A DNA stretch of 32,317 nucleotides from a virus. A program made the position numbers and the translations under genes. The notes below the pieces were generated by a model that was not told the origin of the DNA, did no database searches, and was given only the letters and a program-made list of their open reading frames with translations. Every line of letters begins with the position of its first letter. Position 1 is the stretch's first letter. This document shows positions 4,214 through 8,442 of the stretch, piece by piece. Location of the stretch: IMG/VR virus record IMGVR_UViG_3300044491_000950, positions 1-32,317 of that record, one strand, 5' to 3'.

Positions 4214-5372
4214 AATTTCCAGTCGTTGTTCTTTCATAAGTTTTATTGAATTGATTGTTTACTTTAATAAACGTTGTACATTTGTTGAGTTGTTTGAGAC
4301 AGTTTGCACCGACGTATGTGAGTGTACTACGTACACCTCCTAGTACATCTTGTAGTGTTACTACAACTGGTCCGCGATACGGTACAAGCACTGTGCGGCC
4401 TTCGCTGCTACGATAGTCTTTGAGACCTTCGAAGTGTTTGTTGTTGGCTGTAGCACTACTCATACCGTAGAACTGTACAAATTGTTTTCTTTCAATTACA
4501 CGTTCGCCGTGTAAATCTTCTAGCTGGTTAGTTTCATAAAACTTTTCAATTACTTCACCACCGCCTTCGTCGTGTCCAGCAAGCATTCCGCCTAGCATTA
4601 CAAAGTCTGCGCCGGCAGCAAAAGCCTTAGCCACGTCGCCAGGGCAGGTACAGCCGCCATCAGCAATAATATGTCCACCAAGACCATGAGCCGCGTCTGC
4701 ACATTCGATAACTGCCGAAAGTTGGGGATACCCCACGCCAGTCTGAATGCGAGTAGTGCATACACTACCAGGGCCAATTCCCACTTTAACAATATCTGCA
4801 CCATTTAGTATTAACTCTTGTGTTTGGTCTGCGGTAACTACATTACCTGCAATGATTACGATAGTAGGGTACAACAGTCTAAACTCAGCAACATATTCAA
4901 TGAAACGCTGACTGTATCCGTTTGCTACATCTATACATACATATTTTAGTTTATCGCCAACTTGTTTGTATACGTCACTGAATTTCTGTTGATCTGAATC
5001 TTTAATACCGATGCTCATAGCAACATGTTCTGTACGTTTGGGCACTTCTCCATTAAAGTAATCTACTAGTGCTTGTACACTGTATGTTTTAACAAGACAA
5101 GTAAACACATTAAGTTCGCTTAGTCTATCTGCCATAGCAAATGTTCCAACTCCATCCATATTACTAGCCATAATAGGAATGCCTTCGTAATCATAATCGC
5201 CGTGTGCTGGATAACCATAAGGCAATTCATTGGAGTTATGTTTGGGATTTCTATAATTTCTAAATGCAAAACTTCGTTGCATTTCTACTTCTTTTCGTGA
5301 TCCTAGTGTACTACGCTTTGGTCTAATCAAGACATCAGAGTAGTCTAATTTTGTTTCATCTTCTATTCGCAT
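4212..5372 (-). CDS. guaC: GMP reductase
   Basis: A 386-residue TIM-barrel enzyme of the IMP dehydrogenase/GMP reductase family. GPGSVCTTR puts the catalytic Cys at 205, with Thr207 close by. IIADGG (235-240), GADFVMLGGMLAGH (254-267) and FYGMSSATAN (301-310) bind the nucleotide phosphate and base. The C-terminal part, with FYGMSS, YRSSEGRTV and LGGVRSTLTYVG, follows GMP reductase rather than IMP dehydrogenase, and no CBS domains are present. The reaction is GMP + NADPH to IMP + NH3, which would draw host guanine nucleotides back to the purine branch point during DNA replication. The ATG directly follows the clpS stop (TAAATG), so the two are coupled. Confidence 0.9.
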   Translation of the reverse strand: MRIEDETKLDYSDVLIRPKRSTLGSRKEVEMQRSFAFRNYRNPKHNSNELPYGYPAHGDYDYEGIPIMASNMDGVGTFAMADRLSELNVFTCLVKTYSVQALVDYFNGEVPKRTEHVAMSIGIKDSDQQKFSDVYKQVGDKLKYVCIDVANGYSQRFIEYVAEFRLLYPTIVIIAGNVVTADQTQELILNGADIVKVGIGPGSVCTTRIQTGVGYPQLSAVIECADAAHGLGGHIIADGGCTCPGDVAKAFAAGADFVMLGGMLAGHDEGGGEVIEKFYETNQLEDLHGERVIERKQFVQFYGMSSATANNKHFEGLKDYRSSEGRTVLVPYRGPVVVTLQDVLGGVRSTLTYVGANCLKQLNKCTTFIKVNNQFNKTYERTTTGN

Positions 5373-5675
5373 TTAAGCCTCTTCTATGTCAAAACTGAGT
5401 GGATATCCGGCTGTTCTGCTGAATAGTAAACTTTCGCTTACTTTTTGTTCAGCAATTTCATAGTAGTATATACCCGCAACACCTTTGCCTTCGTTGTGTA
5501 CATGTAATGTAACTTCTTCAGCACTACTTTGGTTGTGATTATATACATTTATAAGCAATTCGATAACAAACTCCATGGGTGTGTGGTCATCGTTGTGTAA
5601 CACGACTTTATACTTACTAGGTCTAGGTGTGTTTAGCCCAATATTATCTATAGTTTGTTCTGTTGATTGTTCCAT
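5373..5675 (-). CDS. clpS: ClpS-like adaptor of ClAP protease
   Basis: A 100-residue protein matching the ClpS fold. KYKVVLHNDDHTPMEFV (21-37) carries the N-degron pocket Asn28/Asp29 and Met34; HVHNEGKG (58-65) is the second pocket segment, followed by YYYEIAEQKV, which contacts ClpA in cellular ClpS. ClpS delivers proteins with bulky N-terminal residues to ClpAP. A phage version could redirect host proteolysis; ClpS homologues are known in some marine myoviruses. The gene has a late octamer exactly 5 bases before its ATG and no Shine-Dalgarno sequence, so it appears to start a leaderless late transcript continuing into guaC. Confidence 0.88.
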   Translation of the reverse strand: MEQSTEQTIDNIGLNTPRPSKYKVVLHNDDHTPMEFVIELLINVYNHNQSSAEEVTLHVHNEGKGVAGIYYYEIAEQKVSESLLFSRTAGYPLSFDIEEA

Positions 5676-5723: not shown

Positions 5724-6158
5724 TTACTTGATTTGAATAGTGCGTGGTTTCTTCTCGTCTGGAACAATACGCTCTAATTCGATGAATAGCATACCATTTT
5801 CCATTCTAGATCCATTTACTACAATGTCGTCGCTAAGTGTAAAGTTGCGTTTGAAATGACGCTGGCTGATGCCTTTGTGTAACCATTCCCATCCGCTAGA
5901 CTCTACTTCGCCTTCTGGTGTGTGTTCAACTGTAAGTACACCTTCTGCTACAGTAATCTCCAAATCTTCTTTGGCAATACCAGCTAGTGCAATTTCAATT
6001 TGAAACTTCTCACCATCACGTACAATGTTGTAGGGTGGATATCCTCCTGTACTATTTTGGTTATGATTTACATATTTGAACATGTCGTCAAATACTCTAT
6101 CAAAGCCAACTGCATATGGAGTAAGTTTATTGATGTCTAATGTTGTTAATCTATTCAT
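5724..6158 (-). CDS. Small heat shock protein (Hsp20/IbpA-like)
   Basis: A 144-residue alpha-crystallin-domain chaperone. PPYNIVRDGEKFQIEIALAG begins the domain. GISQRHFKRNFTLSDDI, then the NGMLFIELERIVP segment and a C-terminal PRTIQIK with the I-x-I oligomerisation motif, match IbpA-type proteins. It would hold unfolding proteins in an ATP-independent way. The start is the ATG at 6158 because AAGGGG lies 7 bases upstream; an ATG at 6164 is too close to that site. It follows the phasin-like gene after 11 bases and precedes clpS. Hsp20 genes are common in marine T4-like phages. Confidence 0.92.
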   Translation of the reverse strand: MNRLTTLDINKLTPYAVGFDRVFDDMFKYVNHNQNSTGGYPPYNIVRDGEKFQIEIALAGIAKEDLEITVAEGVLTVEHTPEGEVESSGWEWLHKGISQRHFKRNFTLSDDIVVNGSRMENGMLFIELERIVPDEKKPRTIQIK

Positions 6159-6169
6159 ATCCATTCCCC

Positions 6170-6367
6170 TTACGCTTTCAATGCCGCTGTATAAGCAGTG
6201 GTCATTGATTCTGTTGCAGTTGCCCAAGATTTAGCAAACTCTGTGTTTGCGTCAGCCATTGCCCGTAGAGGCGTTGTGTACTGTTCACTTGGATCAATTG
6301 TATTGAGGAAAGTTTTTGTTTGTGTGTGGATTTGGTCCACTAGTCCGTTGATGTAATTTGCTTGCAT
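6170..6367 (-). CDS. Small phasin-like protein, 65 aa
   Basis: A short, fully helical, Ala/Thr-rich product. The stretch ANTEFAKSWATATESMTTAYTAALKA resembles the amphipathic helix of alphaproteobacterial phasins (granule-coating proteins of polyhydroxyalkanoate bodies), and the protein is shorter than typical phasins (about 110-190 aa). AAGGAG lies 8 bases before the ATG. The neighbouring Hsp20 is notable because some phasins have chaperone-like activity. The family call is tentative; an unrelated small helical protein is possible. Confidence 0.6.
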   Translation of the reverse strand: MQANYINGLVDQIHTQTKTFLNTIDPSEQYTTPLRAMADANTEFAKSWATATESMTTAYTAALKA

Positions 6368-6397: not shown

Positions 6398-6420
6398 TGT
6401 AGACCCTATTGGCATCTACA
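6398..6420 (-). other. Leader stem-loop upstream of the phasin-like gene
   Basis: TGTAGA and TCTACA pair around an 11-base loop in the leader between a late-type octamer (6425-6432) and the ribosome site at about 6372-6380. Confidence 0.4.
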
Positions 6421-6424
6421 TGTT

Positions 6425-6432
6425 TATTTAGT
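6425..6432 (-). promoter_or_regulatory. Late-type octamer ACTAAATA upstream of the phasin-like gene
   Basis: ACTAAATA on the minus strand, two mismatches from TATAAATA and the same variant found at 31038-31045. Transcription would start near 6419 and give a leader of about 50 bases. Confidence 0.4.
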
Positions 6433-6435
6433 AAT

Positions 6436-6459
6436 TTAGGGACTAACCGTGGTCCCTAA
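6436..6459. other. Perfect 8-bp stem-loop
   Basis: TTAGGGAC and GTCCCTAA flank an 8-base loop. No T tract follows on either strand. It lies between the minus-strand octamer for the phasin-like gene and the divergent plus-strand promoter, so it may separate the two units. Confidence 0.5.
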
Positions 6460-6489
6460 CGTGCGTATTATGGCGCAACCCCTACTACG

Positions 6490-6518
6490 TTGTTTTTCTT
6501 TTATAGTGCCACTATAAT
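6490..6518 (+). promoter_or_regulatory. Plus-strand sigma70-type promoter for the structured RNA
   Basis: -35 TTGTTT (6490-6495), exactly 17 bases, -10 TATAAT (6513-6518, perfect consensus). It points opposite to every nearby protein gene. Predicted start is about 6525. Confidence 0.55.
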
Positions 6519-6524
6519 TCTTAT

Positions 6525-6944
6525 CTAGTGGGGTCCTTTCTTGTTACAGTTAGGATATAAAGTAACTAAATGTCAAAGCTACTTTGAAATACACACTCAC
6601 TTGTGCCCTTGTGAGGTCTTGTCCTATGCACAGGAAAGTAGGTGCATCTACTCTGGTGTGTATTTCAAAATACTATGTTAAAGTGATAGGGAGGATTGCA
6701 GTCTACCTCCAACAACCTAGTAAGTATTTCATACCTTCAGTTGCGCCTAGTATCAAACAGTTACGTTCGAAATACGTATCTTCATGTCTCCATGCTCATA
6801 CGCTGCCACTACAGCTACTAGCCAAGTTATCGTCCTTACGAAACGACATTTCCTTGCACTATCTAACCTAGACCGTCGTCTAACTTATGTATTTAATATA
6901 GTATGTTTTACTTATGAAGTCAAGAGTTTTTTAACTCTTTTTAT
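6525..6944 (+). ncRNA. Candidate structured RNA, about 420 nt, not assigned to a family
   Basis: This protein-free stretch has promoter, structure and terminator in one orientation. The core (6583-6669) is closed by a perfect 14-bp stem (TTTGAAATACACAC with GTGTGTATTTCAAA). Inside are three hairpins: 6597-6614 (TCAC/GTGA, 10-base loop), 6622-6635 (TCCT/AGGA, loop ATGCAC) and 6637-6652 (AGTAG/CTACT, loop GTGCAT). The last two loops are exact reverse complements, so they can form a 6-bp kissing interaction on top of a four-way junction. Further hairpins follow: GGAGG/CCTCC (6690-6710), TACGT/ACGTA (6762-6778), GCTG/CAGC (6802-6815) and TAGAC-CGTC-GTCTA (6869-6882). Reading frames here lack ribosome sites and recognisable products. 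The symmetric core would also fold from the minus strand; promoter and terminator favour plus. Function unknown. Confidence 0.55.
6922..6944 (+). terminator. Intrinsic terminator, plus strand
   Basis: AAGAGTT-TTTT-AACTCTT stem-loop (6922-6939) running into a T tract (6938-6942) on the plus strand only. On the minus strand the stem is followed by GACTTC, so it does not serve the gene ending at 6931, although it overlaps that gene's last codons. It fits the 3' end of the candidate RNA. Confidence 0.55.
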
Positions 6945-7684: not shown

Positions 7685-7924
7685 TTACCAACTATCTTTG
7701 TTTTTTTCTAATTCTTTAAGATGTCGTTTACGTGCTTGTGCTTTTTCACGTTTTTTAATTGCGCTGGGCTTTTCGTAGAATTCTTTTTTACGCATGTCTT
7801 TGACCATACCTTCTGCGTTTACTAGTTTCTTAAGTTTTCGTAATGCACGAGCTACGTCATTACCACGTACCTCTACATATAATCCACGTTTTTCGTATGA
7901 CGGTTTTTTATAATCTTTATTCAT
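7685..7924 (-). CDS. rpsU: Ribosomal protein bS21
   Basis: A 79-residue basic protein. YVEVRGNDVARALRKLKKLV, then EGMVKDMRKKEFYEKPS and the Arg/Lys-rich KKREKAQARKRH tail, follow the bS21 family along its whole length. bS21 sits on the 30S platform beside the anti-Shine-Dalgarno end of 16S rRNA and affects mRNA selection at initiation. It is the ribosomal protein most often found in phage genomes, including those of marine phages. Its ATG overlaps the IF3 stop by 4 bases (ATGA), so the two are made together. Replacement of host bS21 in the 30S subunit is inference. Confidence 0.9.
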   Translation of the reverse strand: MNKDYKKPSYEKRGLYVEVRGNDVARALRKLKKLVNAEGMVKDMRKKEFYEKPSAIKKREKAQARKRHLKELEKNKDSW

Positions 7925-8442
7925 TCTTTCCTCGTTAATATGCCTATTAGGCGGTTTCCGTTTAAACTGGGATTAGCGTCCCAGTGACTATTTTCAAGGC
8001 TATCTGCAATACGCTCCATAATCCCGAAGCCTTGCTGTTTATTAGCGTTTTCTCTACCTCTGTAGCGTATAACACACTTAACCTTGTTGCCTTTGTCTAA
8101 AAATTTATCTATGTTTTTTAGTTTAGTTTCAAAATCGTTGTCGCCAATGCCCAGTTTAAACTGCATTTCTTTAACGACAATTTGACTTTCACGTTGTCGT
8201 TTGGCTGCTTCTTTTTCTTTACGTTTTTGTTCGTAAAAGTATTTACCTGCATCTAATAGTTTAGCTATAGGAGGTTCTGCTTTTTCATTTATAACAACAA
8301 GATCTTTACCATGATTTTCTGCGAGTTTTACTGCATCGTATCGAGACAATATCTGTTGTTGTCCATCTTCTTTTATAACTCTGAGATTGGAATGCTTGAT
8401 ATCTTTATTAATTAGTTTACGAGTTTCTGCTTGTTTACGCAT
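7921..8442 (-). CDS. infC: Translation initiation factor IF-3
   Basis: A full-length 173-residue IF3 (cellular IF3 is about 180). The N-terminal domain (8-72) has RKLINKDI, NLRVIKEDG, DLVVINEKAEPPIAKLLDAGKYFYE. A Lys/Arg-rich linker helix follows, and the C-terminal domain (89-173) starts VVKEMQFKLGIGDNDFETK and carries the rRNA-binding VIRYRGREN...QQGFGIMERI. The Tyr/Arg residues typical of 30S binding are kept, so activity is likely. IF3 keeps subunits apart, checks start codons and the initiator tRNA, and in bacteria disfavours leaderless mRNAs. It overlaps the upstream gene by 8 bases and bS21 by 4. A phage IF3 beside bS21 suggests control of host initiation. Confidence 0.92.
   Translation of the reverse strand: MRKQAETRKLINKDIKHSNLRVIKEDGQQQILSRYDAVKLAENHGKDLVVINEKAEPPIAKLLDAGKYFYEQKRKEKEAAKRQRESQIVVKEMQFKLGIGDNDFETKLKNIDKFLDKGNKVKCVIRYRGRENANKQQGFGIMERIADSLENSHWDANPSLNGNRLIGILTRKE

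What the first reader, a model, noticed from the sequence alone, without database searches (positions are those of the whole stretch)
6490..6944. Plus-strand structured RNA with a kissing-loop four-way junction, own promoter and terminator
All neighbouring genes are on the minus strand. The plus strand here has TTGTTT-17-TATAAT, then a core closed by a perfect 14-bp stem (6583-6596 with 6656-6669), three internal hairpins, and a terminator hairpin with a T tract at 6922-6944. Loops ATGCAC (6626-6631) and GTGCAT (6642-6647) are exactly complementary, so two adjacent arms can lock together. No protein signal explains the region. I cannot match it to a named RNA family. Possible roles are an antisense RNA to the phasin-Hsp20 leader, a protein-binding decoy, or a ribosome- or RNase-targeting RNA; all are speculation.
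Basis: partly seen in the sequence, partly recalled or inferred. Interest (0 to 1): 0.88.

Follow-up and report, generated by a model that had tools for sequence, protein, structure and literature searches.

The report
Roaming phage RNA beside manA RNA

Summary
The 14-bp stem, three inner hairpins and complementary loops exist exactly as stated, but the RNA runs on the minus strand. A late-type promoter, a ribosome-site hairpin, a 65-aa ORF and Hsp20 follow. In relatives the modules come and go: A+B+C, A+C, B+C or none. B has no Rfam match. It is a four-way junction with P2-P3 loop-loop pairing, supported by compensatory changes. It occurs on 74 IMG/VR contigs: 38 inside the excised segment of permuted tmRNAs, 14 in Hsp20 leaders, 9 in stand-alone manA-B units ending in a terminator, 13 in tRNA arrays; one copy per record (40 of 40). 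It was not found in 84,980 prokaryote genomes or isolate phages at the sensitivity used. Best reading: a single-copy, relocatable phage noncoding RNA released from its carrier transcript and acting in trans; target unknown. The plus-strand RNA is not supported.

The parts
6895..6923 (-). Early (sigma-70 type) promoter TTGACT-17-TATATT that starts the leader
   Evidence: the same -35/-10 with exactly 17 nt and a variable spacer sequence in 28 of 28 related Hsp20 loci and in the stand-alone manA-B units
6680..6883 (-). Module A: divergent manA RNA (Rfam RF01745), full length
   Evidence: 51.0 bits, E 4e-12, model 1-192; E 4.8e-14; orthologous leader L023 scores 75.6 bits, above the cut-off of 55.2
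6583..6669 (-).
   Evidence: precisely absent in L002, L004, L021 and L039, present without A in L003
6654..6669 (-). B, P1 5' strand (pairs with 6583-6599, one bulged A)
   Evidence: ten of 16 P1 pairs change on both sides among homologues; coordinates
6583..6599 (-). B, P1 3' strand
6636..6653 (-). B, hairpin P2, loop AUGCAC at 6647-6642
6623..6634 (-). B, hairpin P3, loop GUGCAU at 6631-6626, complementary to the P2 loop
   Evidence: L003 changes both loops together to AUAUAC/GUGUAU; L289 changes P3 C-G to U-A
6606..6616 (-). B, hairpin P4 (3 bp), flanked by conserved ACAAG and CACAAG
   Evidence: five standard pair types at its outer pair among homologues
6438..6551 (-). Module C: conserved structured leader segment, found only in these Hsp20 leaders
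   Evidence: helices change together (CCACUA..UAGUGG versus CACCUA..UAGGUG; AGGGAC..GUCCCU versus GGAGGC..GCCUCC)
6425..6432 (-). Late-type promoter candidate ACTAAATA (relatives: [AGT]ATAAATA and similar), 6-7 of 8 to T4 late TATAAATA
   Evidence: motif inference only
6399..6419 (-). Hairpin GUAGAUGCCAAUAGGGUCUAC just before the ribosome site, present in nearly all relatives
   Evidence: in L028 the promoter abuts this hairpin with A, B and C all missing
6170..6367 (-).
5724..6158 (-). Hsp20 small heat-shock protein
   Evidence: PF00011 E 3.9e-18, phrog_432

Best explanation
The interval is the minus-strand 5' leader of a marine T4-like phage operon (65-aa ORF - Hsp20 - ClpS). It is transcribed early from TTGACT-17-TATATT and built from insertable RNA modules: a divergent manA RNA (A), the kissing-loop four-way-junction RNA (B) and a third structured segment (C). 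A late-type promoter below them probably serves the proteins on its own. This anatomy is shown, apart from the promoter activities, which are inferred from conserved sequence; I put it at about 0.95. The inferred mechanism is that B is a single-copy, relocatable phage noncoding RNA that rides in transcripts that get processed (the intervening segment of permuted tmRNA, tRNA arrays, manA transcripts). It would be cut out of its carrier at its long P1 helix or by the flanking tRNA/tmRNA processing, and then act in trans as a compact folded RNA. The likeliest partners are translation or RNA-decay machinery, because its neighbours are tRNA, tmRNA, S21 and IF-3. Release, trans action and the target are not shown.
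For: Shown: manA match; minus promoter conserved in 28 of 28; modular gain and loss of A, B, C; B structure with compensatory changes; B in permuted tmRNA intervening segments, tRNA arrays, manA units and Hsp20 leaders, always in sense orientation; manA-B as its own unit between a promoter and an intrinsic terminator in L116, L130, L136 and kin. For trans action: exactly one strong B per record in 40 of 40 records although the carrier differs; phages with a permuted tmRNA lacking B carry B elsewhere. By definition the permuted tmRNA intervening sequence is absent from mature tmRNA (PMC11915505), so B there would be released. Neighbours IF-3 and S21 upstream, Hsp20 and ClpS downstream.
Against: No transcript data. 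One copy per genome is also what a single regulated operon would show, and most records are fragments. In the Hsp20 leader B sits in an mRNA 5' UTR, where a cis role is simplest. Close relatives (L002, L004) lack B at this site, and G008 (L004's record, 107 kb) has none at all, so B is dispensable there. Loop-loop covariation rests on few sequences, because the loops hardly vary (one double change).
Confidence: 0.45

Rival explanations
1. A and B are tandem ligand-binding (riboswitch-like) domains that control Hsp20-operon expression in cis.
For: manA was proposed as a cis-regulatory riboswitch candidate, seen before ibpA (Hsp20-type) chaperone genes among others (PMC2864571); P-SSM2 has manA just before purL-hsp20; B has a near-invariant core with variable helices, as aptamers do.
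Against: The same B sits in tmRNA intervening segments and between tRNAs, where no protein gene follows directly. The stand-alone manA-B units end in a terminator followed by a late-type promoter. A, B and C can all be missing with promoter and ribosome site intact (L028). I saw no terminator after B or C in the window leader, but did not model alternative folds.
Confidence: 0.25
2. B is a processing, stability or insulating module: a hard-folded cap on a long helix that blocks exonucleases or offers an RNase III site, useful to whatever RNA carries it.
For: B caps a helix of about 14-26 bp in every context and directly abuts manA or tRNA ends. In tmRNA, P1 continues the acceptor stem.
Against: Only one copy per genome although tRNA arrays have many junctions. 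Loops and junction bases are far more conserved than a generic cap needs. Other tmRNAs use different caps, small ORFs or a minimal loop in the same slot.
Confidence: 0.2
3. The element acts as DNA (hairpin for recombination, replication origin or packaging) and its transcription is incidental.
For: Single copy per genome and movement between sites; G-U pairs do not strongly favour one strand (96.1% versus 94.4%).
Against: Always in the sense orientation of the carrier RNA, in 74 contigs; sits precisely between RNA domains; no tie to replication genes seen.
Confidence: 0.05
4. The first reader's plus-strand, ~420-nt RNA with its own promoter and terminator.
For: A TATAAT-like hexamer and a weak T-tailed hairpin exist on plus.
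Against: Plus fold z -1.0; promoter and terminator not called and not conserved; the plus ORFs have no family; homologues are always read in the window's minus sense.
Confidence: 0.03

Closest known systems
manA RNA (Rfam RF01745; Weinberg et al. 2010, PMC2864571)
   Same: Module A is a full-length match upstream of an Hsp20 gene in a marine phage, the published distribution and gene class.
   Different: The window copy scores 51.0, below the 55.2 cut-off; it is joined to B, and in other phages manA-B sits in tRNA arrays or as a terminated stand-alone unit, which the published 5'-UTR description I read does not mention.
Permuted tmRNA (RF01849 alpha_tmRNA, RF04321 tmRNA_permuted)
   Same: 38 B copies lie exactly in the intervening segment between CCACCA and the tmRNA 5' end.
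   Different: The window has no tmRNA; B is not part of the mature tmRNA and is not modelled by those families (it aligns as an insert).
ROOL and GOLLD phage RNAs (PMC12286853)
   Same: Structured phage RNAs of unknown function near tRNA islands that use kissing loops.
   Different: They are far larger and form cages; B is ~87 nt and matches no Rfam model.
Glutamine riboswitch (RF01739) beside the phage Melnitz tmRNA
   Same: A compact RNA domain attached to a marine-phage permuted tmRNA (PMC9004378).
   Different: It lies 3' of that tmRNA, not in the intervening segment, and B does not match its model.
Purine-riboswitch-type architecture
   Same: Adjacent hairpins joined by loop-loop pairing over a junction (general knowledge, a lead only).
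   Different: B has four helices rather than three, and no purine-riboswitch Rfam hit.

Membership tests
manA RNA (RF01745), module A | Covariance-model score at or above the curated cut-off (55.2 bits) | tested here: not met
   Window copy 51.0 bits. The orthologous leader L023 (75.6) passes. I therefore call A a divergent manA homologue, not a cut-off-passing member.
manA RNA (RF01745), module A | Full-length alignment with significant E-value | tested here: met
   Model positions 1-192, E 4e-12 and 4.8e-14
manA RNA (RF01745), module A | Marine phage or metagenome, upstream of published gene classes (ibpA/Hsp20) | tested here: met
manA RNA (RF01745), module A | Ligand-dependent regulation | not testable with these tools
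   No ligand is named in the papers read
Any Rfam 15 family, module B | A match by covariance model | tested here: not met
   No hit over 6583-6669 at E up to 5 in 631 bases nor at gathering score
Permuted tmRNA, window locus | tRNA-like domain and tag reading frame around the element | tested here: not met
   No tmRNA in the window by ARAGORN or Rfam
New RNA family 'B' | P1-P4 four-way junction with compensatory changes | tested here: met
   14 pairs with changes on both sides; covariation 0.322 versus 0.140 shuffled
New RNA family 'B' | P2-P3 loop-loop pairing kept through change | tested here: met
   6 of 6 complementary in all viral homologues, including AUAUAC/GUGUAU (L003) and AUGCGC/GUGCAU (L147); 0 of 31 pattern hits in prokaryote genomes reach 6 of 6. 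Only one double change, so the support is modest.
Trans-acting small RNA | Released as a separate RNA and active on another molecule | not testable with these tools
   Needs RNA-seq, northern or genetics

The most novel reading that the evidence does not exclude
Marine phages carry an interchangeable set of compact noncoding RNAs that travel as cargo: they are loaded into the intervening segment of permuted tmRNA genes (excised when tmRNA matures), into tRNA arrays or into manA transcripts. B is the most widespread member seen here, a single-copy RNA that acts in trans on the infected cell's translation or RNA machinery.
Probability: 0.3. Interest if true: 0.9.

Novelty: new variant of a known kind. 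Interest (0 to 1): 0.72.

Why it matters
It adds an RNA with a well-supported fold that has no Rfam family and was found only in uncultured marine phages, in places that ordinary annotation skips (tmRNA intervening segments, gaps between tRNAs). It shows that manA RNA, usually described as a cis-regulatory motif, also exists as a stand-alone terminated unit and inside tRNA arrays, which reopens the question of what manA does. It also suggests that the tmRNA intervening segment is a cargo slot for phage RNAs and small genes, which can be tested directly.

Tried and rejected
Plus-strand gene model: rejected. Isolate phages: no B by blastn and none in six phage genomes by covariance model. Prokaryote genomes: 31 pattern hits, none with 6 of 6 loop pairing, so chance; 0 of 289 genomes of one class by model, with strict filters. 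Glutamine riboswitch inside the tmRNA intervening segment: suspected from the Melnitz paper, but it lies 3' of the tmRNA. C outside Hsp20 leaders: the extra pattern hits were unrelated sequence. Using G-U pairs to prove the strand: too weak. Literature search for a published description of B: none found in the open library. The first call for Hsp20 relatives used wrong coordinates.

Full report
What was checked. The stem, hairpins and complementary loops are at the stated coordinates. On the plus strand the full interval folds like shuffled sequence (z -1.0); on the minus strand it folds far better (z -4.2). A permissive Rfam scan finds a full-length manA RNA on the minus strand at 6883-6680 (51.0 bits, cut-off 55.2, E 4e-12; E 4.8e-14 in a whole-record search). 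The orthologous leader in L023 scores 75.6 bits, above the cut-off. Weinberg et al. 2010 described manA RNAs in marine metagenomes and T4-like cyanophages, upstream of genes that include ibpA chaperones (PMC2864571); Hsp20 is of that type, and P-SSM2 also has manA just before purL-hsp20.

The leader. Relatives of the Hsp20 gene were fetched from IMG/VR and their upstream regions aligned. TTGAC[A/T]-17-TATATT is present in 28 of 28 loci, hexamers and spacing unchanged and spacer sequence free to vary. Downstream come three modules. L001, L005, L007, L008 and L015 have A+B+C; L002, L004, L021 and L039 have A+C with B cleanly missing; L003 has B+C with A cleanly missing. Most of L012-L027 read as an A-like plus a C-like segment without B (by eye; only some reach E 0.001 with the manA model), and L028 has the promoter joined straight to the ribosome-site hairpin with A, B and C gone. 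A late-type motif (ATAAATA in most; CTAAATA in the window) follows C. So the modules are insertions in an early leader, and the protein genes can do without them.

Module B elsewhere. Pattern scans of IMG/VR for the B core gave 72 true contigs plus two chance hits in coding sequence (L144, L154), plus L289; L020's contig adds a variant. Contexts over these 74 contigs are: 38 inside the intervening segment of circularly permuted tmRNAs, confirmed on representatives by ARAGORN and by RF01849/RF04321; 14 in Hsp20 leaders; 9 directly after manA in a stand-alone unit bounded by an upstream terminator, a TTGACA-17-TATATT promoter and a downstream terminator (AGCTAGC-CTTGT-GCTAGCT-TTTTTTT), followed by a GATAAATA motif and a structural-type gene; 11 as manA-B directly before tRNA-Pro in tRNA arrays; 2 between tRNA-Pro and tRNA-Asn without manA. 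B is always in the sense direction of its carrier.

Structure of B. Twenty-eight distinct sequences were aligned. With P1-P4 and the loop-loop pairing, 96.1% of cells are standard pairs, 14 pairs have changes on both sides, and the covariation score is 0.322 against 0.140 in shuffles (0 of 500 reach it); slid versions score 0.03-0.08. These shuffles ignore relatedness, so I weigh separate events: different P1 sequences in tmRNA, tRNA and leader contexts; five pair types at the outer P4 pair; a C-G to U-A change in P3 (L289); and in L003 both loops changed together from AUGCAC/GUGCAU to AUAUAC/GUGUAU. The loops otherwise hardly vary, so the kissing interaction rests mainly on its invariance plus that one double change. 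Strand choice from G-U pairs alone is weak (96.1% versus 94.4%); orientation and promoter carry that argument.

Distribution. The same pattern in 84,980 prokaryote species gave 31 hits, none with full loop pairing. A covariance model found nothing in 289 genomes of one class (strict filters), and isolate phages gave nothing. Each B-bearing record has exactly one strong copy (40 of 40); weaker hits are antisense echoes or other tmRNA caps. Phages whose B is in the Hsp20 leader or in a tRNA array often also have a permuted tmRNA, and then its intervening segment holds something else: another structured cap, a small ORF or a short loop. Two of those other caps are letter-identical in strongly different tmRNAs, so caps appear to move as units.

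Mechanism. Shown: conserved early minus-strand promoter sequence, modular leader, divergent manA homologue, structured B, relocation of B between processed RNAs, one copy per record. Inferred: that B is released and acts in trans. For this speak the excision that defines the intervening segment (PMC11915505), the single copy regardless of carrier, and the stand-alone manA-B unit. Against it: no RNA data, and B's absence from close relatives. A translation or RNA-decay target is suggested only by the company it keeps: IF-3 and S21 upstream, Hsp20 and ClpS downstream in the window, tRNAs and tmRNA elsewhere. I put the mechanism at 0.45, cis regulation at 0.25 and a processing or insulating cap at 0.2.

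Novelty. A is a divergent homologue of a published motif, in a published gene context. B has no Rfam 15 match, and I found no description of it in the open papers searched; closed literature was not searched. As a phage RNA of unknown function near tRNAs it belongs to a known kind, next to ROOL and GOLLD (PMC12286853), but its size, fold and tmRNA location are new as far as tested.

Noticed in passing
L342, L348 (G008:C1:59500-60200), L311 (Melnitz): Intervening segments of phage permuted tmRNAs can hold small ORFs (37 aa in L342, 62 aa in L348; an ATG frame also begins in Melnitz) instead of a structured cap.
   Followed up: partly
L353 versus L354/L356; L359/L360/L363 versus L361/L362/L148/L365: Two other structured tmRNA intervening caps are letter-identical between phages whose tmRNA bodies are very different, as if swapped as modules.
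   Followed up: partly
window 7688-8442 (minus): The phage encodes ribosomal protein S21 and a full translation initiation factor IF-3 upstream of the leader.
   Followed up: partly
window 4215-5675 (minus): ClpS protease adaptor and an IMPDH/GMP-reductase-like enzyme follow Hsp20; ClpS and Hsp20 together suggest proteostasis control.
   Followed up: partly
L122 4166-4405: About 240 nt of apparently noncoding sequence between tRNA-Arg and the next ORF in the manA-B tRNA array may be another structured RNA.
   Followed up: no
P-SSM4 164829-165014; HTVC008M 5037-5223: manA RNA lies directly after pstS in P-SSM4, overlapping an annotated small ORF; a weak manA-like hit (25.9 bits) overlaps small gp008 in HTVC008M.
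   Followed up: partly
window 6399-6419 (minus): Hairpin GUAGAUGCCAAU..GGGUCUAC before the Hsp20-operon ribosome site is kept even when A, B and C are all missing (L028); possibly a translational control element for the operon.
   Followed up: no
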